Shown piece by piece: positions 15,591-27,996 of a DNA stretch of 27,996 nucleotides. Made by a program: the position numbers and the translations under genes. Position 1 is the first letter of the stretch; every line of letters starts with the position of its first letter. The stretch spans positions 1 through 27,996 of IMG/VR virus record IMGVR_UViG_3300037793_000039, one strand, 5' to 3'. Source of the stretch: a virus. Under the pieces are notes generated by a model that was given only the letters and a program-made list of their open reading frames with translations, was not told where the DNA came from and did no database searches.

Positions 15591-15908
15591 TCATTTTACC
15601 AGGCTATTCACCCAGTGGTTAAATGACGCCCTGGTCCGCTGTCGCTCCTCGAGCGTATCGAATTCGTTCTCCAGGCTGCGCGGCTTCCATCCGGCCAGCG
15701 AACACAGGATCGCCATGCCCTCAAAATACCTGCTGCAATGATGAATCAACACAACGGCCCTGCAGATCCGCTGTTGTACAGACCAGGGCACATCTATTCG
15801 GCCCTTTACCTTGGCGCTGTTCTTGACCAGGGTTTTGAGCTCTTTTGTCTCAACATCAAACAGCCTCTCGATTTGCTGCGTGTGCTCATCTTCGTAGGCA
15901 TCCATCAT
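15591..15908 (-). CDS. Hypothetical helical protein, 105 aa
   Basis: The start ATGATGG overlaps the TGA stop of the large terminase, with GGGAGGAAC directly upstream, so either of two adjacent ATGs (15908 or 15905) may be used. The sequence is mostly helical and charged (EHTQQIERLFDVETKELKTL) with one hydrophobic patch containing Cys and His (VVLIHHCSRYF). No signal or membrane segment. Close coupling to the terminase suggests a packaging-related or accessory role, unproven. Confidence 0.6.
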   Translation of the reverse strand: MMDAYEDEHTQQIERLFDVETKELKTLVKNSAKVKGRIDVPWSVQQRICRAVVLIHHCSRYFEGMAILCSLAGWKPRSLENEFDTLEERQRTRASFNHWVNSLVK

Positions 15909-17437
15909 AGTTCCTCCCACCCCTGCTCAGAGGATAGATCATTATCAACAGTGGCAAAGCTGCTCTCGAGCCGGCGTTTTTCATCCCATGCAGCCTTTGC
16001 GGCCGGCTCAAGCTGCGCCTCTTTGGCTGCGATCTTTGCGGCGTTTATCTCAGCAGCGATGGCCTCAACATCCAGGTTGATCGGCCTGGCCATGCACAAC
16101 AGCGACGCCTCGTCATAGCAATGATCCTCGAGATCGGTGTCGACATCTTCCACGTTGTGCTCATCGTGGGTCAGCGCCGGCACCGTCCGGATGAAATCTG
16201 CGCAAGTCTCATAAACCACCATCATCGGCATCCCCTCGCTGCCATCGGGATTCACCGGGATGCGCAAGCGCTCATGGAATTGGCGAACTTTAAGTGTGCG
16301 GTTCGGATCGCCTTTTTGCAAGTTGATTATGCCGCATCCGGCAAAAACCTCAGCCGTGCTTTTGCCCTGGCCGCCACCCTGGTAGTCGGGTTTTTTATTC
16401 CAGCAGTCAGGCGAGAGAATGTGGACAACCTTGTCCTTGATGCCCTCTTCTTCTTCAATGCGGTTGATGTGACCGGCAATGACGGTATCGGTCTCGCGGG
16501 TGCCGGTGTTTGGCTGCCCGCCTGGCATCTGGCCGTATCGTTCGCGAAATCGATAGAAGCGGCCATCAGCATCCACCCACCACCAGCCTATCGAGTACGG
16601 TGCGCCGAAGCCCCAATCCATCGTCATGTAAAGCGGTGCTCCGTGGGGAATGGGTCGCGGTTTAATCACATGGTGACGGTGAGAAAAGAGAAACATTTGT
16701 CCGATAAAGATATCCCAGTTGCCGGTTTTATAAGCCGATCGCCAGGGCTCTGGCAGGTTGTTCAGCCTGACGATGTACCCGGGGTCAACGCGATTTAATA
16801 TCGGGTTGTCCTCGAGCAGCCCGGGAATGTACTGCCTGAGCATCGGTGGCGCATCCGGATTGCTGACATCTGGCGGCGCCCGCTTGAGCTCATAGGGGCG
16901 AGCGAAACTTATCCAGCGCTCTTTGACCCACTGGTGACCGACGTTGCCTGGGTTGGTGGCGCAATAGACCCCTGGAACCTTGTGCTTAAATTCCGGCGGG
17001 ACGTCCAAAGTGCAGCGCACGCGGCCGTACAGATAATTGTAGATCCACGCGGTGAATGTGGTGAGCTCATCTATTAAAAGCACGTGGATCTCGGCGCCCT
17101 GGTAGGCGAACACATTTTTTTCGTGTTGGCAATGGCAGAAGTGAAACATTGCCCCATTGAAAAACTCCCAACGCTTCTCGGCCTTGTTGTATGAGGCCAG
17201 GCTGGTCGGAAATTCCAGCCAGCTCTGCAGAATGTGATTATGCTCCAGCTCGGGGTAGGTCCGCCGAAAGAGAAAGACCTGGAGGTTTGGAATCTTCACG
17301 CACCAGCGCAAGCCCTCTTGGCGCAGCGAATGACTTTTGCCGGGTCCCGCAGCCCCGCCGAATAAAATTTCGTTTGCCGGAGAGCTGTGGAGCTGAGCTT
17401 GTTTCGGTTGTGGGTTGTAGGCCAGCCGTACGTCCAA
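15905..17437 (-). CDS. terL: Terminase large subunit, 510 aa
   Basis: The ATPase domain shows a Walker A variant GGAAGPGKS at residues 27-35 and Walker B VLLIDE at about 119-124, followed by LTTF. A C-terminal nuclease domain of the RNase H-like type is indicated by YMTMDWGFGAPYSIGWWW (an Asp after a beta strand) and by later acidic residues near LSPDCW and YDEASLL. Together these motors pump DNA through the portal and cut concatemers. Length is normal for the family. The start lies 3 bp after the stop of a small Cys protein, and the gene follows the small terminase, as usual. Confidence 0.93.
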   Translation of the reverse strand: MDVRLAYNPQPKQAQLHSSPANEILFGGAAGPGKSHSLRQEGLRWCVKIPNLQVFLFRRTYPELEHNHILQSWLEFPTSLASYNKAEKRWEFFNGAMFHFCHCQHEKNVFAYQGAEIHVLLIDELTTFTAWIYNYLYGRVRCTLDVPPEFKHKVPGVYCATNPGNVGHQWVKERWISFARPYELKRAPPDVSNPDAPPMLRQYIPGLLEDNPILNRVDPGYIVRLNNLPEPWRSAYKTGNWDIFIGQMFLFSHRHHVIKPRPIPHGAPLYMTMDWGFGAPYSIGWWWVDADGRFYRFRERYGQMPGGQPNTGTRETDTVIAGHINRIEEEEGIKDKVVHILSPDCWNKKPDYQGGGQGKSTAEVFAGCGIINLQKGDPNRTLKVRQFHERLRIPVNPDGSEGMPMMVVYETCADFIRTVPALTHDEHNVEDVDTDLEDHCYDEASLLCMARPINLDVEAIAAEINAAKIAAKEAQLEPAAKAAWDEKRRLESSFATVDNDLSSEQGWEEL

Positions 17438-17836: not shown

Positions 17837-18454
17837 TTAAATCCCGGGCGGGACCGGCTCCGGATCCGGCACGTTTGTGTATACATTGAAAGTGCCGGTC
17901 TTGGCAATATCGCCATCTTTGCGGTCCAAGGCTAAGCTCTTGCGCTCGATGTCAACGGCCGCAGTCAGCGACCTGGAGGCGTTGGTCAGCGCCTGGGCCC
18001 GCTTGGTGACATCATCTTGCAGCTGCACCTCGCTGCCGTCTTTTGTAACCACCGTAAACGGCTCGTTGGCATCGACCTCGCGGATAATTCTCATCGCCGC
18101 CGCTCTCAGCTCATCCGCATTCCGCCTGTGTTTGTACACAGCCTCAGCGGCCACCTCGGCCGCCTCGTCGACTGTTTCGTCATCTGACTTCCTGTCTCTC
18201 GGGGCTTTGTCAACAGCACCGTCAACACCACCAGCGCGGTCTGTTTTTTCAATCACCTTTCGGGCGACAGCTTTTTCATAGCGCTCGGACAGATCCCGCT
18301 TCCATTTTTCTTTTCGGGCCACCACACCGATGCGTTGCCGGCTGATGCTTTCTCCTGGGAATTGCTCGGCATATTTGTCCGAGATTTGCCCGAGGGTGAA
18401 TCCCAACTCGAAGCGTTTTCGTATCCATTCCCAGTTTTTCTCACGTGGGTTCAT
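17837..18454 (-). CDS. terS: Terminase small subunit, 205 aa
   Basis: The N-terminal 50 residues form a helix-turn-helix-type DNA-binding domain (FELGFTLGQISDKYAEQF, then SRQRIGVVARKEKW). The middle is acidic and helical, fitting the oligomerisation core, and the Pro-rich C-terminus (VPDPEPVPPGI) would contact the large subunit. Small terminases recognise the packaging start site. AGGGGG lies about 10 bp before the ATG. The 9-bp repeat array begins only 17 bp upstream of this start, which makes a recognition link worth testing. The call rests on domain order and the position before the large terminase. Confidence 0.75.
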   Translation of the reverse strand: MNPREKNWEWIRKRFELGFTLGQISDKYAEQFPGESISRQRIGVVARKEKWKRDLSERYEKAVARKVIEKTDRAGGVDGAVDKAPRDRKSDDETVDEAAEVAAEAVYKHRRNADELRAAAMRIIREVDANEPFTVVTKDGSEVQLQDDVTKRAQALTNASRSLTAAVDIERKSLALDRKDGDIAKTGTFNVYTNVPDPEPVPPGI

Positions 18455-18470
18455 ATTCGCTTTTCCCCCT

Positions 18471-18887
18471 TGGGTTTCTAATTAAGCCTGGCACGCTATT
18501 CCTGCATGGGTTTCTATATCTTAATGGCTCGCTTGGACATATTGGGTTTCTATCCCATAACGGCTGACACGCTTTTTCCGTCTGGTTTTCTTTTCATAGA
18601 TGGCTCGCTTCTGAACATTGGGTTTCTATGTCATGACGGCTGGCACGCTTTTTCCCTCTGGGTTTTTAGTGCAAGCTGGCACGCTTTTCCACCGTGGGTT
18701 TTTAGGTCATGACGGCTGGCACGCTCAGGTTCGGCGGGTTCCTAATTTTTTATGGCACGCTAAGAAGCGATGGGTTACTCAGCTATCCTGGCTCGCTTTG
18801 CATATGTGGGTTTTTATGGTGGTCTGGCACGCTCTCTTTGAATGGGTTCTTGGTTTGCCTTGGCACGCTAATTACCGATGGTCTCCT
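18471..18887. repeat. Anchor-spacer array, block I (18/36-bp period)
   Basis: About 23 alternating 9-bp anchors (plus-strand sense): type B TGGGTTTCT or TGGGTTTTT at 18471, 18507, 18543, 18583 and onward, and type A TGGCACGCT or TGGCTCGCT at 18489, 18525, 18565 and onward. Anchors are separated by 9-bp spacers that differ from unit to unit. Three spacers (18552, 18628, 18704) are 13 bp and all end in CGGC, breaking any reading frame. TGGCACGCT dominates type A here, unlike blocks II-IV. A near-duplicate of about 76 bp is visible (compare 18628 with 18704). The block ends in a T-run and degenerates by 18887. It occupies the leader of the small terminase gene. Confidence 0.9.
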
Positions 18888-18911
18888 TTTTTTTAACGGC
18901 ACACCATTTTT

Positions 18912-19062
18912 TTGTCACCTACCTCGCCAACCTCGCCGTACCTCGCGGCGAAGAAGATATGGGTGAGGGTGACAAGCCACACCATCGCCTACTAACCCGG
19001 CGGCTTTCGATACACGCTGTGCTGTCCGGTGTGTTCTGCCCCTTGGCAGCTTGTCACCCCTC
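18912..19062. ncRNA. Cloverleaf-like structured segment with alternative pairing
   Basis: GAGGGTGACAAG (18965-18976) pairs with CTTGTCACCCCTC (19050-19062, one bulge) to close a multibranch structure. Inside are CACACC (18978-18983) with GGTGTG (19028-19033), a hairpin CTGCC-CCTT-GGCAG (19036-19049), and ATCG (18984-18987) with CGAT (19008-19011). The same GGTGACAA strand can instead pair with TTGTCACC at 18912-18919, which gives two mutually exclusive folds. No credible ORF is present. It fills the gap between array block I and the tRNA-like element. Sense strand is unknown; phage transcription would favour minus. Confidence 0.45.
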
Positions 19063-19068
19063 ATAATT

Positions 19069-19199
19069 TGGTTGGGCGTGGCAGGGCTTGAACCTGCAAT
19101 CGGGACATCTAAATCGGCTTTTCCCGTAGGGGAGGTTGTTTAACCTTTATCCCTCTGCCGTCAATGCTGCGTCTATCCTATTTTCGCCTACACGCCCAA
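19069..19199 (-). tRNA. Oversized tRNA-like element with Leu-type features
   Basis: On the minus strand a 7-bp acceptor GGGCGTG/CACGCCC is followed by T and A at positions 8 and 9. The D-arm GCG-AAAATAGGATAGA-CGC closely resembles tRNA-Leu, with the G18-G19 pair and the conserved A residues. A perfect T-arm GCAGG-TTCAAGC-CCTGC and discriminator A are present, followed by ACCA. A CGGGA/TCCCG stem sits where a class II variable arm is expected. The body is 125 bases, about 40 more than a class II tRNA, and no normal 5-bp/7-base anticodon arm can be drawn; the surplus contains a nested hairpin (AGGTT-AAAC-AACCT). It may be a pseudogene with an insertion, a tRNA with an intron, or a tRNA mimic. 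Confidence 0.5.
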
Positions 19200-19214
19200 C
19201 ATGAAAAACCCCCC

Positions 19215-19245
19215 AAATATTGATTATTTGAAAAAATCAATATTT
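19215..19245 (-). terminator. AT-rich hairpin between anti-CBASS gene and tRNA-like element
   Basis: AAATATTGATT (19215-19225) and AATCAATATTT (19235-19245) are perfect 11-bp inverted repeats with a 9-bp loop. On the minus strand the stem is followed by GGGGGG and TTTTT, an unusual tail that makes termination uncertain. It lies after the stop of the Acb2-like gene. An operator role is the alternative. Confidence 0.45.
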
Positions 19246-19309
19246 CACCAGTTTTTTTCTTACCCATTCTATGCAATAATTATAGGTTTAAATCGTCTTT
19301 CCGGATCGC

Positions 19310-19543
19310 TTAATCCCCTTCGTTTCGAGCAATCGCTGCATTTGCCCACATGACCGATTCTTCAAGTTTCCGGACGGCTAATGTTTGCTCCCGGCTATAG
19401 GGCGTTTTTTCTATCATAAGCTTCGCCAACTCAAGGGCCGCATCGCGCAGCATTTGGTAGCGTTGCTCTTGATCGCCAATCGGGGGGTGATAGACGAACC
19501 AATTTTCGAGTTGCTTAGTCGTAATCATTTTCCAGTCTTTCAT
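19310..19543 (-). CDS. Acb2/Tad1-like anti-CBASS protein, 77 aa
   Basis: The sequence carries the recognisable Acb2 hairpin pattern: NWFVYHPP (residues 14-21), DQEQRYQMLRDAALELAKLM (24-43), then TLAVRKLEESVMWANAAIAR (54-73). Phage Acb2 proteins form helical oligomers that bind and sequester cyclic oligonucleotide signals produced by CBASS defence, so the host effector is not activated. Length fits the family (roughly 70-90 aa). An internal ATG at codon 6 is an alternative start. The gene overlaps the upstream small membrane peptide gene and is bounded by the tRNA-like element and array block II. The family call is from remembered motif pattern, and ligand choice cannot be judged. Confidence 0.8.
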   Translation of the reverse strand: MKDWKMITTKQLENWFVYHPPIGDQEQRYQMLRDAALELAKLMIEKTPYSREQTLAVRKLEESVMWANAAIARNEGD

Positions 19544-19652
19544 CCGACAATGGTTTTTTAAGCTCTTCGTATAATATCATCCAGAGAATGTAAAAAATTA
19601 GCAATCCTGCCGCGAGACTTTCATCTATTATTTCTTTTACAGTGATTTTCAT
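19515..19652 (-). CDS. Tiny single-pass membrane peptide, 45 aa
   Basis: MKITVKEIIDESLAAGLLIF starts a 45-residue frame with one hydrophobic segment at about residues 13-28 and an acidic C-terminus. Its end overlaps the start of the Acb2-like gene by 29 bp in another frame. The ribosome site is weak (GAGAA). It begins 19 bp beyond the first anchor of array block II, in the only AT-rich, array-free stretch nearby. The amphipathic composition looks protein-like, but function is unknown. Confidence 0.45.
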   Translation of the reverse strand: MKITVKEIIDESLAAGLLIFYILWMILYEELKKPLSDERLENDYD

Positions 19653-19671
19653 TCTAATTCTCAATCAATGA

Positions 19672-20076
19672 GGGCTCGCTCAGCTCAAGTGGGTTTCTCC
19701 CTTCGATTGGCATGCTTGTTTTCACTGGGTTTCTAAATATCTCTGGCACGCTTACACCTTACGGATGGCTACATTGCTTTGGCTCGCTGATTAGTCCTGG
19801 TGTTCTGCCCCTCTTTGGCTCGCTAGATGTTTATGGATTAACAATTTGCCCTGGCTCGCTCACATGTTATGGGTTTATAGATGTTTATGGCTCGCTCATA
19901 TGTTCTGGGTTTATAGACGATAGCGGCTCGCTTGGTCTTCGAGGGTTTTTAGCTTCCGATGGCTCGCTCACGTTTTTTGGGTTTCTGCCAATCTCCGGCT
20001 CGCTTGGAGGTATTGGGTTTCTGCCAATTCTCGGCTCGCTCACGTATTTTGGGTTTATGGCAGGTTCCGGCTCGCG
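19672..20076. repeat. Anchor-spacer array, block II
   Basis: Twelve type A anchors (mostly TGGCTCGCT or CGGCTCGCT) at 19672, 19708, 19744 and then every 36 bp to 20068 alternate with eleven type B anchors (TGGGTTTCT, TGGGTTTAT) at 19690 to 20050. Every spacer is exactly 9 bp, the most regular block. The plus frame is open for about 120 codons (GSL-xxx-GFL pattern), but the minus frame has TAA in spacers at 19825, 19861 and 19879. Repeated spacers such as AGATGTTTA (19825, 19879) and GCCAATCTC/GCCAATTCT (19987, 20023) show local duplication. Confidence 0.92.
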
Positions 20077-20109
20077 CTAACATTATACACGATTAAGCCG
20101 GTTATTAAA

Positions 20110-20604
20110 TGGCTCGGCTAAGATGACATGGGTTTGCTGCACTTTCTTGGCCCGCTTTGACTTATTGGGTTTCTATTGTTGAATGGCTCGTTTTCTGTGG
20201 TTTTCTTCTACCCTGTGGCCTCGCTTACTGCTTATGGCTTTCTATCACCTTAAGGCTCGCTGAAAACACTTGGGTTGCTCGCATGCCCTGGCTCGCATCA
20301 GTTCTTTGGGATTCTTATTATATTTGGCTCGCATCAGTTCTTTGGGATTCTATATTTTTTTGGCTCGCATCTATGCTTTGGGATTCTTAGTTTTTTTGGC
20401 TCGCTTTATTTCATAGGTTTTCTAACTCTCCGCGGCTCGCTCGATGACGCTGGTTTTCTCAAAGGTCTCGGGCTCGCTTATTTTTAATGGCTTCCTAACG
20501 CACCCTGGCTCGCTACCTTTTAGTGGTTTTCTTTTTCCCTGTGGCTCGCTTGAAACCATTGGTTTTCTAGGCTCCGCTGGCTCGCTCCTTTCATTTGATC
20601 TTCT
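20110..20604. repeat. Anchor-spacer array, block III
   Basis: About 14 type A and 14 type B anchors. The low end is irregular: 10-bp anchors TGGCTCGGCT (20110), TGGGTTTGCT (20129) and TGGCCTCGCT (20216), and a 5-bp spacer at 20193. Three near-identical units around 20289-20387 use TGGCTCGCA and TGGGATTCT with the spacer TCAGTTCTT twice. Later units use TGGTTTTCT. A 10-bp spacer at 20460 breaks phase. The last anchor overlaps the stop region of the Cys4 peptide gene. It is separated from block II by only 33 bp (20077-20109) that hold no visible feature. Confidence 0.9.
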
Positions 20605-20770
20605 CAGACAGTTTGGCTATTTGTCCCAAATAATAACTGATTGTGCAAACAACACACGTTGACTCCTCAAAGTCCCACCACATGCAATCTTCTTCCCGGC
20701 AAGTAAACTGTGGCTCTATGTCCACCAACTTTAAACTCGTTACTTTGGGGTCGGCTGACAACCCGGCCAT
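20591..20770 (-). CDS. Small Cys4 protein lodged between array blocks, 59 aa
   Basis: C-x4-C-x9-C-x2-C (CREEDCMWWDFEESTCVVC) suggests a one-metal zinc knuckle, with a helical C-terminal tail (YYLGQIAKLSEKIK). Similar short phage proteins with a C-x-WW-D/E pattern exist, function unknown. I choose the ATG at 20770 (MAGLSADPKV); the in-frame ATG at 20791 would include an array anchor (GGGCACGCT at 20778), so it is less likely. The ribosome site is weak. The gene replaces array sequence exactly: an anchor overlaps its end and another lies 8 bp before its start. Confidence 0.6.
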   Translation of the reverse strand: MAGLSADPKVTSLKLVDIEPQFTCREEDCMWWDFEESTCVVCTISYYLGQIAKLSEKIK

Positions 20771-20777
20771 TATAAAA

Positions 20778-21739
20778 GGGCACGCTGACATAAGCTTTTT
20801 TCCTCTTCTTTTTGTGGCTCGCTGGTTTCTTCTGGCTCTCTCATATCCTTTTGGCTCGCTTGACCTCCCTGGCGTCCTTTATCTTCCTGGCGCTATGGAT
20901 CGCTTAAATCAATAGGGTTGCTCATCATCCATGGCTCGCTAGATTCCATCGGGGTTCTGGTTTTTTTTGGCTCGCTCAGCCACTTTGGGGTTCTAATCGC
21001 TTCTGGCTCGCTCAGGCATATTGGGGTTCTGGTTTCTTGTGGCTCGCTCCGGCATATTGGGGTTCTGGTTTTTTTTGGCTCGCTCGGGCATGTTGGGGTT
21101 CTGATGGCTAATGGCGACTTATTACTCTTTTCTTCTGGCTCGCTCCGGTACATTGGGGTTCTGGTTTTTTTTGGCTTGCTTATGGATGCCGGTTTTCTTG
21201 CCTCTATTGGCTCGCTTATTAGAAATGGTTTTCTCCCTCATTTTGGCTAGCTTACTGGGGGGGGTTCTAAACTTTTGTGGCTCGCTTGGGAATTCCGGTT
21301 TTCTATCCTTGCCTGGCTCGCTTACTGTTTTTGGGTTTATTTTTTCATCTGGCTCGCTTGGGAATGCCGGCTTTCTAACCTCCCCTGGCTCGCTTTTTTC
21401 GTCTGGTTTTTTAAACCTCCCTGGCTCGCTTTGGACGCATGGTTTTCTAACGTGATTCGGCCGCGCTACAACTCGATGGTTTTCTTTGTCCAGATGGCTC
21501 GCTTGGGACGCATGGCTTTCTAACATGGCTCGGCCGCGCTACAATGAATTGGTTTTCTTTGTCCTAGTGGCTCGCTTGACCAAGCTGGTTTTCTGAAAAT
21601 TTTTGGCCGCGCTCAGAAAAAGTGGTTTTCTTTGACTCGTTGGCTCGCTTGGGAGGCATGGTTTTCTACCAACCCCTGGCTCGCTTGACCAGACTGGTTT
21701 TCTGACAATTATTGGCACGCTCATCTGTTTTGGGGTTTT
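20778..21739. repeat. Anchor-spacer array, block IV
   Basis: The longest block, about 27 type A and 26 type B anchors. Its low end (20778-20905) is ragged with missing or short spacers. From 20932 it is regular. Type B is mainly TGGGGTTCT in 20950-21162 and mainly TGGTTTTCT in 21190-21703, so the two halves expanded separately. A 10-bp type A variant with core GGCCGCGCT recurs at 21458, 21531 and 21604, defining a 73-bp higher-order repeat. Related spacers recur, for example CAGGCATAT, CCGGCATAT and CCGGTACAT, and TTGTCCAGA with TTGTCCTAG. The array ends at 21739. Confidence 0.92.
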
Positions 21740-21819
21740 TAGTTGTTTCGGCGTGAGCCTTTTCCCTACCAGGGGCTTTATAGGCTGTCAATATATTTAT
21801 TTAGAACGTAGCGACAATT

Positions 21820-22032
21820 CTACCGTTTCTTTTCGGTTACCATCCTCACCCGGGCGAATTTGCGCTCGGTGTCCCGGTAATGAACTCGCGGCCGCAAACC
21901 CTCAGCTCGGCCGTGTCTGCAAATCCAGCACGTGCAAGCGGCCATGTCCCAGTGCTGCGTCATTATCCTTTCGACAATCTCCTCAGCGCTCATTTTCTGC
22001 CTCCTCTCGACAACCTTTGTTAGATTGACCAT
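21820..22032 (-). CDS. Small Cys-motif protein, 70 or 57 aa, with two ribosome sites
   Basis: Contains CTCWIC (C-x-C-x2-C) followed by R-H, then a basic tail (RDTERKFARVRMVTEKKR). Two starts are equally supported: the ATG at 22032 and one 13 codons later, each preceded by GAGAGGAGGCA-A at 7-8 bp. The repeat of this 16-bp leader looks like a short duplication. The first start overlaps the radical SAM gene stop. A metal-binding role is possible. It is the last ordinary gene before the array in transcription order. Confidence 0.6.
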   Translation of the reverse strand: MVNLTKVVERRQKMSAEEIVERIMTQHWDMAACTCWICRHGRAEGLRPRVHYRDTERKFARVRMVTEKKR

Positions 22033-22841
22033 TTTTTGCCTCCTCTCTTTTTGTTATTGTACGCCGCCGGCCGGCTCCATTTCCTGGCCATATCGGTCCA
22101 GTCGCGGGTGTAGACCTTTGGCTCCTCGGGTTGGTAGAGCTGGCAAAATGGCAAAAAGCCCATATCGTAAACCGCCTCGAGCCTGGCCTCGGCTTGATTT
22201 AATGATTCACCATCATAGCCGATCATCACATAGGCCCGCTTCTTCCACAGCGGCAGCTCGCCAAACAGCTTGGCCGCATATTTCAACGGCCGGAGGGCAC
22301 CTTCCTCGTCGGCAGCAAACCACAGCTCGCCTATGGTGATCGATTTAAAGAGCTCAAGGTGCCAGGGCCTGAGCAGCCTGGCATCCAGCCCGCCGTTAAA
22401 AGATGCCGCTTTGCGCTGGTCGCGCAGCATGGCGAACACCCGCTCAACGTGTGCTTTTGAGCAAGCAAGGATGTTGTTGTCTTGGATGATGTGACCAGGA
22501 GCGATCGATTTGAGCTCGCGGATCCGGCCTTCTCTTGCCGGCACGTGGCACCAGGGACAGTGCCGAATGCACCCGCGGCTGGTGATGGTGATGCCTTTTC
22601 TTAGAAAGAGTCCAGCGGTGAATTCACCGCCTGGATCCCCGAGGCCTGGTCCGCCGAGTTCAACTCTGCTGTAGAACCGCGACCAGGACCGCTGCAGATG
22701 CTCGGCCCTCGGAATATCCCAGGTGAACGGAACCGAGATTGCAACAGGTTGCTCGGGCGGCCGAAACAGCTCAGGTTCGCCAAAAAAAGCAAGCTCATCG
22801 TCAGGGGTCCATTTAGACTTGCGTAAAAAAACACGGATCAA
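22020..22841 (-). CDS. Radical SAM domain protein, 273 aa
   Basis: Residues 91-98 (CIRHCPWC) give the C-x3-C-x2-C motif that binds the catalytic 4Fe-4S cluster, preceded by a strand ITITSRG as usual. The downstream FNGGLDARLL and IGELWFAADE fit the glycine-rich and acidic positions of the partial TIM barrel. The enzyme would cleave S-adenosylmethionine to make a 5'-deoxyadenosyl radical, but the substrate is not evident. The N-terminal 80 residues have no recognised domain. It is encoded between a membrane-anchored protein and a small Cys protein. Radical SAM proteins are known in phages, sometimes for nucleotide or peptide modification; no partner here indicates which. Confidence 0.85.
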   Translation of the reverse strand: MIRVFLRKSKWTPDDELAFFGEPELFRPPEQPVAISVPFTWDIPRAEHLQRSWSRFYSRVELGGPGLGDPGGEFTAGLFLRKGITITSRGCIRHCPWCHVPAREGRIRELKSIAPGHIIQDNNILACSKAHVERVFAMLRDQRKAASFNGGLDARLLRPWHLELFKSITIGELWFAADEEGALRPLKYAAKLFGELPLWKKRAYVMIGYDGESLNQAEARLEAVYDMGFLPFCQLYQPEEPKVYTRDWTDMARKWSRPAAYNNKKRGGKKWSI

Positions 22842-23924: not shown

Positions 23925-24231
23925 GTGGGAGAATGCTTTCTATGTGGGCATCGAGTGTCGACTCGAGATCAAAAAGTGCTTTCTTGTCGCGTTCACGCTT
24001 GATGCTTTCTGAGAACGCCCTGTCAGCTTGCTCGGTTAGAGCTTTTATAAGTGAAATTTTTTGGCGAACAACCCCCTGGAGGTAATCGGCCTGCTCGCGC
24101 AAGCGCTCAACTTCCTTTTCGTAATACTCCCTGTGCGCACGCATGAGGTGTACTTCAGCTGCTTTCTTTCGATCAATTTTTGTTTCATCCTCGATTTTTC
24201 TATAATCGATGTATGCTTTGTCCTCCGGCAT
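23917..24231 (-). CDS. Coiled-coil hypothetical protein, 104 aa
   Basis: Nearly all helix and highly charged, with heptad-like hydrophobic spacing (YYEKEVERLREQADYLQGVV and LIKALTEQADRAF). No Cys motif or membrane segment. It overlaps the next gene by 8 bp and starts 13 bp after the previous stop with GAGAGGAGG upstream. Function unknown. Confidence 0.7.
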   Translation of the reverse strand: MPEDKAYIDYRKIEDETKIDRKKAAEVHLMRAHREYYEKEVERLREQADYLQGVVRQKISLIKALTEQADRAFSESIKRERDKKALFDLESTLDAHIESILPHG

Positions 24232-24244
24232 TGCAAACCTCCTC

Positions 24245-24487
24245 TCAAAAAATTTGCTTGTCTAAAAGTATTTGGTATGCCTCTTCGAAAAAGGTGCTAA
24301 AAAGCGGCATGTGCGATCGGTTGGCGTAAAGGCCTTTTTGTAAGATGTCATCCTCGATGGCACTGTAGCACCTGTAGCAAAACGCATAACCAGGTTTTTT
24401 TTCATTGCCGCACAGGCACTCTTCGCTGGTTAATGTTTTCCGGTAAAAATCAAAGTCTTTTTGGTTCGGGTTTATTTTTAGTTTCAT
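24245..24487 (-). CDS. Small zinc-finger-like protein, 80 aa
   Basis: Cys pairs CLC and CYRC around residues 22-40 (ECLCGNEKKPGYAFCYRCYS) suggest one zinc site of ribbon type, with a helical C-terminus. The start at 24487 is decided by AAGGAGG 7 bp upstream; the frame is open further upstream but that part overlaps a hairpin region and lacks a site. A DNA- or RNA-binding role is plausible. Confidence 0.75.
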   Translation of the reverse strand: MKLKINPNQKDFDFYRKTLTSEECLCGNEKKPGYAFCYRCYSAIEDDILQKGLYANRSHMPLFSTFFEEAYQILLDKQIF

Positions 24488-24517
24488 GGGGCGCCTCCTT
24501 TTATCGCAAGAAAAAAG

Positions 24518-24610
24518 GATGGTGGCGAGCCGGAAGGCATATGCAGTAAATGGCAGATCAGAAAACCCATTTTTGCGCCTTAGGACCCTATGTCCTGGCC
24601 CGCCACCATC
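24518..24610 (-). promoter_or_regulatory. Long hairpin with U-run in leader of zinc-finger-like gene
   Basis: On the minus strand GATGGTGGCGGGCCAG pairs with CCGGCTCGCCACCATC (14 Watson-Crick pairs, one G-U, one mismatch of 16) around a loop of about 60 bases that holds a second hairpin AGGAC-CCTAT-GTCCT. The distal arm is followed by CTTTTTTCTT, so the structure resembles a terminator or attenuator. It fills most of the 127-bp gap ahead of the zinc-finger-like gene. Confidence 0.55.
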
Positions 24611-24614
24611 ACAC

Positions 24615-24797
24615 TTAGCGCCGCCGGTACTGATCGATATCGGTGATCTCATCCATCAGCGCTTTTTTCTTTTCCACATCCCCATATCTGATTCGCGTAA
24701 CCCCGCGAAGCGTCTTTTTTCGTTTCTTGCGCCGCTGCTCGGCGCTTTCTTCTCTTTCTTTTTTTTTGCCGAAAATTCTTCTGATTGTTTTTCTCAT
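24615..24797 (-). CDS. Very basic small protein, 60 aa
   Basis: MRKTIRRIFGKKKEREESAE begins a 60-residue, Lys/Arg-rich helix-type protein. I choose the ATG at 24797, preceded by AGGGG; the open frame extends upstream into a GC-rich hairpin region and is unlikely to be coding there. Nucleic-acid binding is suggested by charge alone. Confidence 0.5.
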   Translation of the reverse strand: MRKTIRRIFGKKKEREESAEQRRKKRKKTLRGVTRIRYGDVEKKKALMDEITDIDQYRRR

Positions 24798-24831
24798 GAG
24801 GTGCCCCTGCGGTTGGCGGTTGGTCGAGTGT

Positions 24832-24922
24832 GCGGCCGGGGGTGGTGAGTCCCCGGCCGCGAGAGGAGGCCGCTCGGTCCAATGTGGCCGCTGCATGGGC
24901 GGCAGTGCCACGGTATTGGACC
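24832..24922 (-). ncRNA. Two strong hairpins upstream of basic small protein
   Basis: Hairpin 1: GCGGCCGGGG (24832-24841) with CCCCGGCCGC (24851-24860), perfect 10 bp, 9-base loop. Hairpin 2: GGTCCAAT-GTGGC (24876-24888) with GCCAC-GGT-ATTGGACC (24907-24922), 13 bp with a 3-base bulge, topped by CTGC/GCAG. They fill the 150-bp gap between the basic protein and a conserved phage gene. No U-run follows, so a structured leader, RNA or replication-origin role is more likely than termination. Confidence 0.45.
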
Positions 24923-24947
24923 TCGAGCCCGCTTTATTGTAGCCGGT

Positions 24948-25697
24948 TTAGAACAAGATCGGCAAGCTATTATCATCGATTTTGGCTTCAAGGTAATCAG
25001 CAATCGCTTTTTTATAGTCCAGTTGCCAGTGCAGGTTTTTCACCGGCGATAGCGACACCATCGGCTCCTTGTTTTGCATGGAGAGCCGAATGTAATAATT
25101 AACCTCGGCGGGCTCGAGCTCGGTGAAGCTTACAAATGGTCGCAAGTTTAAACTGTTTCTCACCTCGTGAGCCCCCACCCGCACATGGCCTTTTTTCGCG
25201 GTAATCGATTGCGAAACACCATCGTCGAGAAAGGCCTGCTGGCTCTCATACACCCAGCTGCTCAGGGTCTCGACTAAATAGTCACGGTCGCTGCTCTCTG
25301 CAAAGAGTGTCAGCAAACCAATGATCGCCGCCTCCAGTTTATAATTTTGAGGCTCGAGCGTTGCCACGGTAGCTTTGCCATGCGTGGGACCTACAGTCGC
25401 CTTGGCCATGACGCACACCTCTCGGCGGTTCCACTGGTCGAGTTCCCATACCAAACTAACCAGCCAGGGGCTCTCAATATGCAGATATTTCGATCGGTTG
25501 GGGTTGTGGTTGTCGGGGTTTGTGTTGATGTATTCGATGAGACTGGTAAGGGTTGAGACCTCAAGAGCGCTGCTTAGCTCCGGTTTGATCGGATTGAATC
25601 CATGTACCGTTTGGGCGAAATCCTCGCCATTGATTTGGATTACCTCGGGCCGCGTGTGCTCCAATATCCAGTCGGCGAACTGAACTAAATCGTACAT
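24948..25697 (-). CDS. Conserved phage protein, DUF2303-like, 249 aa
   Basis: The C-terminal half has the pattern DDGVSQSITAKKG, then LNLRPFVSFTELEPAEVNYY, then a final helix DYKKAIADYLEAK, as in a family of about 240-residue proteins found next to replication genes in many phages (related in style to DUF2303). No catalytic motif is known. Start overlaps the stop of the upstream gene by one base. A role in replication or DNA metabolism is inferred from location only. Confidence 0.6.
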   Translation of the reverse strand: MYDLVQFADWILEHTRPEVIQINGEDFAQTVHGFNPIKPELSSALEVSTLTSLIEYINTNPDNHNPNRSKYLHIESPWLVSLVWELDQWNRREVCVMAKATVGPTHGKATVATLEPQNYKLEAAIIGLLTLFAESSDRDYLVETLSSWVYESQQAFLDDGVSQSITAKKGHVRVGAHEVRNSLNLRPFVSFTELEPAEVNYYIRLSMQNKEPMVSLSPVKNLHWQLDYKKAIADYLEAKIDDNSLPILF

Positions 25698-26050
25698 CAG
25701 ACCTCCTCTCGCTTGAATTCTGCCACGTTTAGCGGCAGTTCCTGTTGTTGGTATGCGTTAAGCATCCGCGCCACCATTTTGCCCCTCTCACGGCCGCAAA
25801 CAAATCGACCTTCCCACCCGCGGTTGTCGGCCAATTTTGTTTTAACCCCGACTTTGACCACATGCATTCCGGAAACCCGGTCGGGCACGATGGTAAACTC
25901 CAGGCTGATGCGCCGGCTCTGCTCGCCGGTGTTCGGGTCATCGATGTTCTCGAGCACCCTGCCCAGGGCATCGTCAAAGAGCTCGATGGCCGCTTTGATC
26001 TCGGTTAAACTCAAGTGCTGCTCAGATGTAATCATAAAGCCTCCTCTCAA
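25697..26050 (-). CDS. Hypothetical early protein, 117 aa
   Basis: Starts MRGGFMITSEQHLSLTEIKA; a helical N-terminus is followed by a beta-rich half (ISLEFTIVPDRVSGMHVVKV, then GVKTKLAD). The E-F-x-x-x-P-D-R and V-K-x-K-L-A pattern resembles small phage proteins annotated as replication-terminator-like that are paired with the DUF2303-like gene. This match is by pattern only. It overlaps the helicase stop by 4 bp (ATGA). Confidence 0.6.
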   Translation of the reverse strand: MRGGFMITSEQHLSLTEIKAAIELFDDALGRVLENIDDPNTGEQSRRISLEFTIVPDRVSGMHVVKVGVKTKLADNRGWEGRFVCGRERGKMVARMLNAYQQQELPLNVAEFKREEV

Positions 26051-27384
26051 TAGTCACATTGTTGATGTTTCGCCATACTCGCAAATTCCATTTGGTTTTC
26101 GATGAAAAGCAAACTAACCGTTCCTACGGGTCCGTTGCGCTGTTTGGCAAGAATTATTTCAGCCGTGTGGCGTTTGGGATCGTTGGGATCGCGGTTGTAG
26201 GCCGCGCTCCTGAACAACAGCAAGACGTTGTCGGCGTCCTGCTCCAGGTCACCCGAATCCCTCAGGTCGCTCAGCCGCGGGCGCTTATCGGGGCGCTCCT
26301 CACACTTGCGGTTGAGCTGATTTAACACCATAATAGGCACCTTCAATTCTTTGGCCGCAGCCTTGATCGCTCGGCTGATCTGGCCGATCTCAGCCACTCG
26401 GCTGCGCTGGTCGTCGCCTGATAAAAATCCCATATAATCAATAATAACGAACTTGACGCCTTCTTTTATCACGGCCCGGTGCATTTTCCGGATGAGCTCG
26501 CCGTAGTGCATCCTCGGCGTATCGTCGATGAGAATTGGAAACGTGTGCAGCTCGCTGGCCGCATTGCTGATATCCTGCCAATCCTGGGGTGACAAACACC
26601 CGCTTCGAAAGCGCTGGCTGCTGACCTTGCTCTGCAGGCCGAGCAGGCGGGTGACCATCTGGATCCTGGCCATCTCGAGGCTGAAAACCGCGGTCTTAAC
26701 CTGGTTCTCGCCGAGGTTGCGGGCAATGTTGAGCGCAAGGGCGGTCTTGCCCATCGAGGGCCGGCCGGCCAAAATCGTCACCTCTCCGGCATGCATCCCG
26801 CCGGTCAGCTGGTCCAGATCAGCAAAGCCGGTGGCGATTCCGCCGGTGCCGCCCCGCTTGGCGACCGCCTCGATGTGCTCGATAGTCTCGTTAAGGACCG
26901 CATCAACGGACACGAGCTCCCGGGATTGCTGTCCGATATCAACCGAAAGGATCTTTGCGTAACTTTCGGCCAGCACCTGTTCGGCATTGCCGTTGGCGTT
27001 AAATGCCAGAGATGAGATTTCATACGCGGCGGTGATCAGCTGCCTCATCGCGGCTTTCTGCAGCAACACATTGGCGTAATGCTCATCGTCTGATGGCAGC
27101 GGCACATCGCCCAAAAGCTTGGCGAGCATGTTGATTCCGCCGGCAGCATCCAAGCGCTTGGTGCGCACCAGGGCCTCTCGCAGTGTGTTGACATCAATCG
27201 GATCGTTCCGGATGGTAAGGGCGGTGATAGCGTTAAAGATAATTTGATGTTTGGCCGCATAAAAATGTTTTGGCCTGAGTTTGCCTAAAAAATAATATCG
27301 GGACTCATCGAAGAGCAACGCTGCGGAGAGCACCGATTCTTCAAAATCAAGGTTTTGTGGTGGTGGTATCCCGTTGTTGATCAT
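26047..27384 (-). CDS. dnaB: Replicative DNA helicase (DnaB family), 445 aa
   Basis: An N-terminal helical domain (residues 10-110, starting NLDFEESVLSAALLFDES) is followed by a RecA-like ATPase with Walker A GRPSMGKTAL (about residue 205), Walker B FVIIDYMGFLSG, the arginine/QQ-like segment LSDLRDSGDLEQDADNV, and KQRNGPVGTV near the end, all typical of hexameric DnaB. It unwinds the lagging-strand template and recruits primase. Length is typical. GGAGG lies 5 bp before the ATG; the start overlaps the loader-like gene. The phage appears to carry its own helicase with a possible loader. Confidence 0.95.
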   Translation of the reverse strand: MINNGIPPPQNLDFEESVLSAALLFDESRYYFLGKLRPKHFYAAKHQIIFNAITALTIRNDPIDVNTLREALVRTKRLDAAGGINMLAKLLGDVPLPSDDEHYANVLLQKAAMRQLITAAYEISSLAFNANGNAEQVLAESYAKILSVDIGQQSRELVSVDAVLNETIEHIEAVAKRGGTGGIATGFADLDQLTGGMHAGEVTILAGRPSMGKTALALNIARNLGENQVKTAVFSLEMARIQMVTRLLGLQSKVSSQRFRSGCLSPQDWQDISNAASELHTFPILIDDTPRMHYGELIRKMHRAVIKEGVKFVIIDYMGFLSGDDQRSRVAEIGQISRAIKAAAKELKVPIMVLNQLNRKCEERPDKRPRLSDLRDSGDLEQDADNVLLLFRSAAYNRDPNDPKRHTAEIILAKQRNGPVGTVSLLFIENQMEFASMAKHQQCDY

Positions 27385-27751
27385 TTATCCTCCATGGCTC
27401 AGGGCCTTGATAGGCTGACGCCCAGGTATGCAGCGCACCGAGCGATGGGAATTTGCCGAAGGTGTCCTCCAGCATCAGGTGCTCGGCGGCAAGTTTTAAG
27501 TAATAAGGCGTGAATTTTCTTAGATATTTATAGTAGATCCGTTTTGTTTCCTTGGGCAGCTTGTGCTGATACGCATTCTCGAGCATTTCAATAATCTCAT
27601 CGAATTCCCTGGGCAGGCACCGCGGGTTTGTGACTTTTTGGGGCGGCTGCCAGCCGTGGGCCATCATGATCTCTTTCGCCCGCTCAAATTCACGCTTGTT
27701 TTTGTTCGTTTCGGATGATGCCTCTGAGGTAACTTTCGTCGATTTTTCCAC
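27347..27751 (-). CDS. Putative helicase loader, about 134 aa
   Basis: A helical protein with KFTPYYLKLAAEHLMLEDTF followed by FPSLGALHTWASAY near the C-terminus, a layout like small phage helicase loaders (G39P/DnaI-type), which carry a conserved F-P-S/T motif. Position immediately upstream of and overlapping DnaB supports this. The GTG at 27751 overlaps the previous gene by 62 bp; an ATG at 27667 would avoid overlap but has a weak ribosome site. Confidence 0.6.
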   Translation of the reverse strand: MEKSTKVTSEASSETNKNKREFERAKEIMMAHGWQPPQKVTNPRCLPREFDEIIEMLENAYQHKLPKETKRIYYKYLRKFTPYYLKLAAEHLMLEDTFGKFPSLGALHTWASAYQGPEPWRINDQQRDTTTTKP

Positions 27752-27996
27752 CTGGCTTGTCTCCTCTTTTGAAATTCTTGTCGTTATAGATCTTGATCGC
27801 CTTTTCCACTACATGCTCGTCGTAAGGTTTCCCACCATTTTTGCCGCCGGCCAAAGTCCACTTAACGAGATCCGCCAACGTGCTCGATATGATTTTTCCG
27901 GATTTTCGCGACGCGCACATGTTAAATACGAGATTTTCGATCGATTCTTCGTTGAATTTTTTAAGGTAATCAGCTTCAAACGGGTGAAATTCTTCG
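27690..27996 (-). CDS. Partial replication-associated protein (5' end outside window)
   Basis: The frame is open to the right edge, so the gene begins outside the window. The visible C-terminal 101 residues read through VFNMCASRKSGKIISSTLAD to KIDESYLRGIIRNEQKQA, a mixed helical region with a Lys/Gly-rich loop, and the ending resembles DnaD- or O-like replication proteins where SYL-x-GI-L/I-x-N precedes the stop. With the loader and helicase downstream, a replication-initiation role is likely but not proven. Confidence 0.5.
   Translation of the reverse strand, partial: EEFHPFEADYLKKFNEESIENLVFNMCASRKSGKIISSTLADLVKWTLAGGKNGGKPYDEHVVEKAIKIYNDKNFKRGDKPGGKIDESYLRGIIRNEQKQA

What the first reader, a model, noticed from the sequence alone, without database searches (positions are those of the whole stretch)
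20950..21703. Unit duplication, anchor subtypes and a 73-bp higher-order repeat
Type B anchors switch from TGGGGTTCT (20950-21162) to TGGTTTTCT (21190-21703), and a 10-bp type A form recurs at 21458, 21531 and 21604. Neighbouring spacers are similar while distant ones are not, for example CAGGCATAT/CCGGCATAT/CCGGTACAT and TGGGACGCA/TGGGAGGCA. The array therefore grew by local tandem duplication, then spacers diverged while anchors stayed, implying selection on anchors.
Basis: seen in the sequence. Interest (0 to 1): 0.7.

Follow-up and report, generated by a model that had tools for sequence, protein, structure and literature searches.

The report
Phage dual-guide RNA array grown by copying
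This stretch of a bacterial virus is a long list of short paired RNA guides (a TIGR array), and comparing its copies shows that the list grew by copying neighbouring entries whose guide letters then changed while the fixed handles stayed the same, which bears on the open question of how these lists grow.

Summary
Observation confirmed; interpretation partly supported. The feature belongs to an array of about 62 + 62 alternating 9-bp anchors in three blocks (18457-21757). Read on the minus strand they are AGCGAGCCA (edge) and AGAAACCCA/AGAACCCCA/AGAAAACCA (loop), separated by 9-nt spacers: a TIGR array. The same arrays occur in >200 contigs. In 76 of 76 testable loci they lie on the strand of one gene family, median 13 bp away, and that family is Tas (profile matches to TasH 7e-54 and TasR 4e-41). 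This record holds no tas gene, but a 93-95% identical sister phage does. A second such repeat (76 bp) lies at 18507-18725. Between related phages whole 36-nt units come and go, and the spacers of kept units change less (1-10%) than third codon positions (10-38%). So copying plus spacer divergence is one route; whole-unit turnover dominates. No targets were found. New member of a known kind.

The parts
20815..21757 (-). [quoted passage not shown]
   Evidence: anchors and 9-nt spacers every 18 bp; strand from 76/76 tas genes lying on the same strand as AG..CCA arrays
19672..20604 (-). TIGR sub-array II: about 26 units, with irregular units near 20110 and 20184-20217
18457..18905 (-). TIGR sub-array III: about 12 units; ends in a 3'-truncated edge repeat AGCGA (18457-18461), 2 bp before the ATG of the next gene (18454)
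21422..21649 (-). 73-bp higher-order repeat: two-unit blocks with alternating 9-bp and 10-bp edge repeats (AGCGAGCCA, AGCGCGGCCA/G); three copies 21422-21494, 21495-21567, 21568-21640; TRF extends it to 21668
   Evidence: TRF; copy alignment: anchors 3/74, spacers 36/72 differences between adjacent copies
18507..18725 (-). 76-bp higher-order repeat: two-unit blocks in which one spacer is 13 nt (GCCGTCATGACCT and variants)
   Evidence: TRF: anchors 6/72, spacers 32/80
   Evidence: TRF: anchors 0/54, spacers 19/54
20298..20405 (-). tandem 36-bp unit copies with loop subtype AGAATCCCA and edge TGCGAGCCA; one spacer (AAGAACTGA) identical in two neighbours = recent copy
   Evidence: TRF: anchors 1/36, spacers 11/36
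21790..21817 (-). weak sigma-70-like site (TTGTCG-16-TATATT) just upstream of sub-array I, possible array promoter
   Evidence: 3 sites found against 3.0 expected by chance, so weak
17837..18454 (-). gene directly downstream of sub-array III, two genes before the large terminase subunit (15905-17437): phage packaging region; small terminase subunit by position (inference)
   Evidence: (no Pfam match)

Best explanation
The feature is part of a TIGR (tandem interspaced guide RNA) array of a tailed phage. The minus strand is transcribed and cut into 36-nt tigRNAs; each carries two 9-nt spacers held between edge and loop repeats that a Nop-domain Tas protein binds, and the two spacers pair with the two strands of an 18-bp DNA target (mechanism inferred from Faure et al. 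2025, not shown here). The array enlarged by tandem copying of one- and two-unit blocks; after copying the anchors were kept, most likely by selection for Tas binding and processing, and the spacers of the redundant copies changed (shown by paired divergence; the cause is inferred). Across the wider family, arrays also change by gain, loss and replacement of whole units, while spacers that are kept change slowly. The effector in this lineage is probably a nuclease-less TasA, encoded about 12.5 kb away in the sister phage.
For: Architecture: alternating 9-bp anchors every 18 bp with 9-nt spacers; edge keeps the G2-C7 pair (55/62) and the extra C3-G6 pair (58/62), loop is A-rich and lacks the 3-6 pair, as Faure et al. 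describe (PMC12045711). The same arrays are in >119 viral stretches for one exact pattern and in many CPR, archaeal and bacterial MAGs. One protein family in 75 of 119 array loci, same strand 76/76, median gap 13 bp. Profile match to TasH 7e-54 and TasR 4e-41, next IS621 2e-4. The sister phage (93.5% and 95.3% identical on either side of the array) encodes this Tas; its AlphaFold model (pLDDT 89) matches TasH and TasR first, then IS110 enzymes, then Nop5, and shows no nuclease domain. Spacers are not depleted of stops in any frame on the array strand, so not coding. Growth. Near-identical strain L041: 3 array differences, all in spacers.
Against: No tas gene in this 28-kb record, and in the sister it lies about 12.5 kb away on the other strand, whereas 71 of 76 other loci have it within 300 bp. 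Anchors start with AG, not the UG of TasR arrays. No transcription data and no targets. Copied blocks are visible in only 7% of arrays. Conserved anchors could also reflect conversion between units rather than selection alone.
Confidence: 0.82

Rival explanations
1. TIGR array in which new spacers are captured from other DNA (CRISPR-like adaptation), each insertion copying the neighbouring repeat; similar neighbours are incidental.
For: Copying of the adjacent repeat would also cluster anchor subtypes. Most spacers in most arrays resemble no other spacer of the array. 56 of 134 units in a related phage family have no relative in the other arrays.
Against: Neighbouring spacers themselves are similar well beyond chance. 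No end-polarity of new units (shared units at mean relative position 0.54, unshared 0.49). One replaced unit in L254 is an exact copy of a unit elsewhere in its own array. No source or target sequence found.
Confidence: 0.25
2. Arrays are mosaics: whole units move between arrays of related phages and between positions by recombination in the anchors; local tandem copying is minor, and new spacers rarely arise.
For: In a family of phages with 73-97% identical flanks, 78 of 134 units have a relative in another array; spacer A and spacer B travel together (72 of 110 pairs have an identical spacer B given a matching spacer A); whole-unit replacements in L052/L254 and L208/L255.
Against: Most shared units are collinear and interspersed with unshared ones, as vertical inheritance with gain and loss would give. 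The window's own units have no convincing relatives outside its strain.
Confidence: 0.35
3. A degenerate tandem repeat coding for a hexapeptide protein (SEPxxxRNPxxx on minus, GSLxxxGFLxxx on plus), in decay.
For: ORFs of 82-134 aa with such repeats exist in both strands.
Against: Frames break at 7-, 10-, 13- and 33-nt gaps; stop codons in spacers occur at about the rate expected from composition on the array strand in all frames; no third-position bias in spacer differences.
Confidence: 0.01

Closest known systems
TIGR arrays of TIGR-Tas systems (Faure et al. 2025, PMC12045711)
   Same: Two alternating short repeats (edge, loop), 9-nt spacers, 36-nt unit, box-C-like CCA end, A-rich loop, extra G-C pair in the edge, truncated edge at both ends, phage location, Tas genes next to the same arrays in relatives
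   Different: Boxes are AG..CCA rather than UG..CCA; about 58 units against the usual 5-15; higher-order two-unit repeats and 13-nt spacers; tas not beside the array but about 12.5 kb away on the other strand in the sister phage; no clear terminator found
CRISPR arrays
   Same: Repeat-spacer array encoding guides
   Different: Two alternating 9-bp repeats, 9-nt spacers, no cas genes recognised in the window, no end-polarity of new units
VIPR vrRNAs (PMC13142463)
   Same: Phage-encoded repeat RNA guides
   Different: VIPR has alternating GGY/NN motifs and a RAMP protein; not the 18-bp period or Nop-type protein seen here
IS110 bridge RNAs and box C/D snoRNAs
   Same: Guide RNA bound by a Nop-like domain with C and D boxes
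   Different: Mostly single RNAs, not dual-repeat arrays; the Tas here matches TasH/TasR far better than IS621 or Nop5

Membership tests
TIGR dual-repeat array | two distinct alternating 8-12-nt repeats with 9-nt spacers, conserved within a locus | tested here: met
   62 edge and 62 loop anchors of 9-10 nt; most spacers 9 nt
TIGR dual-repeat array | box C / box D motifs shared by edge and loop, pairing G-C; extra pair only in the edge; A-rich loop | tested here: met
   AG..CCA in both; 2-7 pair GC 55/62 and 48/62; 3-6 pair CG 58/62 in edge, absent in loop
TIGR dual-repeat array | array starts and ends with a truncated edge repeat | tested here: met
   5' CTCACGCCG at 21749-21757 (weak, 4 of 9 letters as in the edge); 3' AGCGA at 18457-18461
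TIGR dual-repeat array | rho-independent terminator after the array | tested here: not met
   no minus-strand terminator-like site in 18300-22100; the paper says 'typically', so not strictly defining
TIGR-Tas system | tas gene with a Nop domain associated with the array | tested here: inconclusive
   absent from this fragment; present next to same-class arrays in 75 of 119 loci and in the sister phage genome
TIGR-Tas system | processing into 36-nt tigRNAs bound by Tas | not testable with these tools
   needs RNA-seq or pull-down
TIGR-Tas system | tandem-spacer targeting of both DNA strands | tested here: inconclusive
   no excess of 18-bp targets in 2.8 Mb held, in either geometry; one widely kept unit gave 3 and 3 hits in all of IMG/VR, chance level
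CRISPR | single repeat type with 25-40-bp spacers | tested here: not met
   two repeat types, 9-nt spacers
VIPR | alternating GGY/NN motif RNA | tested here: not met
   period 18, anchors AGCGAGCCA/AGAAACCCA (PMC13142463 abstract)

The most novel reading that the evidence does not exclude
TIGR arrays enlarge without adaptation machinery: units are copied or swapped as 36-nt cassettes, a redundant copy changes its two spacers and so becomes a new guide, while guides that are kept are held by purifying selection because they aim at very conserved sequences. New guides would then be born by copy-and-diverge rather than captured.
Probability: 0.4. Interest if true: 0.82.

Novelty: new member of a known kind. 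Interest (0 to 1): 0.62.

Why it matters
[quoted passage not shown] This array preserves stages of expansion (identical, slightly changed and strongly changed neighbours with constant anchors), and the related phages collected here give a first clock for unit turnover. Both make the question of where guides come from directly testable by population sequencing. Slow change of kept spacers suggests that they have lasting, conserved targets.

Tried and rejected
Pfam Nop (PF01798) search of 50 array-bearing records: no hit over the cut-off; the model misses Tas, so the family was found instead by all-against-all comparison. Target search in both geometries and control geometries in 2.8 Mb: no excess. 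Target scan of IMG/VR with the most widely kept unit (GAAGGACAT / TCCTTACRA): 3 hits in each order, chance level. Interior half-units chosen by weak neighbours were mostly chance and were dropped for scored blocks. Permuting spacer order inside parser-split sub-arrays had little power; the curated whole-array test replaced it. Radical-SAM-like gene as a handle for relatives: none; terminase worked. Rfam: one sub-threshold box C/D snoRNA match, E 0.19, taken as chance. Coding hypothesis and VIPR considered and rejected.

Full report
What is there. Every specific statement checks out: the B-anchor switch (with five exceptions), the 10-bp A form at 21458, 21531 and 21604, the named spacer pairs, and the 73-bp period. 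Chance is excluded for subtype clustering (0 of 20,000 shuffles) and for similarity of near spacers (>=7/9 in 18/359 near against 9/2508 far; 0 of 5000 shuffles for the >=6/9 count).

What it is. On the minus strand, the strand of the neighbouring phage genes, the anchors read AGCGAGCCA and AGAAACCCA (or AGAACCCCA, AGAAAACCA). Both start with AG and end in CCA. The first keeps a G2-C7 and a C3-G6 pair, the second is A-rich and lacks the inner pair. This is the anatomy of edge and loop repeats of TIGR arrays (PMC12045711), with 9-nt spacers, a 36-nt unit and truncated edges at both ends.

Independent test of membership. An exact pattern of two anchors hits at least 119 viral stretches; further patterns bring the set to 223 contigs with arrays, including CPR, Altiarchaeales, Bathyarchaeota, Spirochaetaceae and Dehalococcoidia MAGs. 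One protein family is shared by 75 of 119 loci. It lies on the array's strand in 76 of 76 testable cases, within 300 bp in 71, median 13 bp. Its profile matches TasH (7e-54), TasR (4e-41) and, weakly, IS621 (2e-4) among solved structures. No such gene is in the window record. A 61-kb contig of a sister phage (93.5% identical over window 24117-27996, 95.3% over the genes from the terminase on) lacks just the stretch with the array, apparently an assembly break, and carries a tas gene about 6.2 kb beyond the window's right end on the other strand. Its predicted structure (pLDDT 89) matches TasH and TasR first, then IS110 enzymes, then Nop5, without a nuclease domain, so a TasA type.

How the array grew. 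Four tandem groups in the window were compared copy against neighbouring copy: anchors differ at 10/236 sites, spacers at 98/242. A second two-unit higher-order repeat (76 bp, 18507-18725) has the same pattern. A contig 99.9% identical to the window (L041) differs in the array at three sites, all in spacers (small numbers).

Is this general? In 274 non-redundant arrays of 197 contigs, 23 copied blocks stand against 0.25 expected, in 20 arrays, at distances of 1-14 units; anchors differ about 5%, spacers about 22% (choosing blocks by spacer similarity makes this conservative). Most spacers have no relative in their array. Related phages show why: above 97% flank identity arrays share nearly all units; at 75-97% they share from none to about a half, mostly a tenth to two fifths; below 70% none. 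Units change as wholes: the array of L254 differs from that of L052 (99.2% identical) by one unit, which is an exact copy of another unit of the same array, and by three anchor letters. Spacer A and B travel together. Kept spacers differ 1-10% where third codon positions differ 10-38%, so they are conserved or recently exchanged; collinearity favours conservation. There is no leader-end polarity of new units.

What is inferred. Transcription, processing and DNA targeting rest on the published system, not on data here. Selection on anchors is inferred from their constancy between copies and across unrelated phages plus their role as the Tas-binding boxes; conversion between units may contribute. 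Target searches were negative.

Caveats. Metagenomic assemblies tend to break near these arrays (three near-identical contigs start within or near it), so single unit replacements could be assembly errors; the recurrent pattern is less likely to be. The parser splits arrays at irregular units. Flank divergence mixes genes. Pairs of related contigs are not independent of one another.

Noticed in passing
window 19310-19528, minus strand: A 72-codon gene between TIGR sub-arrays II and III matches Acb2_Tad1_hairpin (Pfam PF24729, E 2.6e-13), a family of cyclic-nucleotide sponges that counter CBASS/Thoeris; an anti-defence gene embedded in a guide array.
   Followed up: partly
window 19069-19199, minus strand: A tRNA-like ending (TTGGGCG ... 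GGTTCAAGCCC ... CGCCCAA-CCA) with a very long interior, not called by ARAGORN nor by Rfam, lies between two array blocks.
   Followed up: no
L182 10030-10962 (sister phage G051): The tas gene is about 12.5 kb from the array position and on the opposite strand, unlike 71 of 76 other loci where it lies within 300 bp.
   Followed up: partly
PP438412.1 (Microcystis phage Mvi-JY20) 21649-22026: The only named phage in the INPHARED set with a relative of the sister phage's Tas (29% identity, E 8e-9, annotated hypothetical).
   Followed up: no
L254 and L052, last array units: In two 99.2% identical phages one unit is replaced by an exact copy of a unit about 12 units away in the same array, as if by conversion.
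   Followed up: partly
L009, L034, L052, L103, L189, L199, L204, L208, L216, L254, L255: One unit (GAAGGACAT / TCCTTACRA and variants) is kept in 11 contigs whose third codon positions differ by up to 38%; no target for it stands out in IMG/VR.
   Followed up: partly
window 18565-18725: Three units have a 13-nt spacer (GCCGTCATGACCT and variants) that is better conserved between copies than the neighbouring 9-nt spacers.
   Followed up: partly
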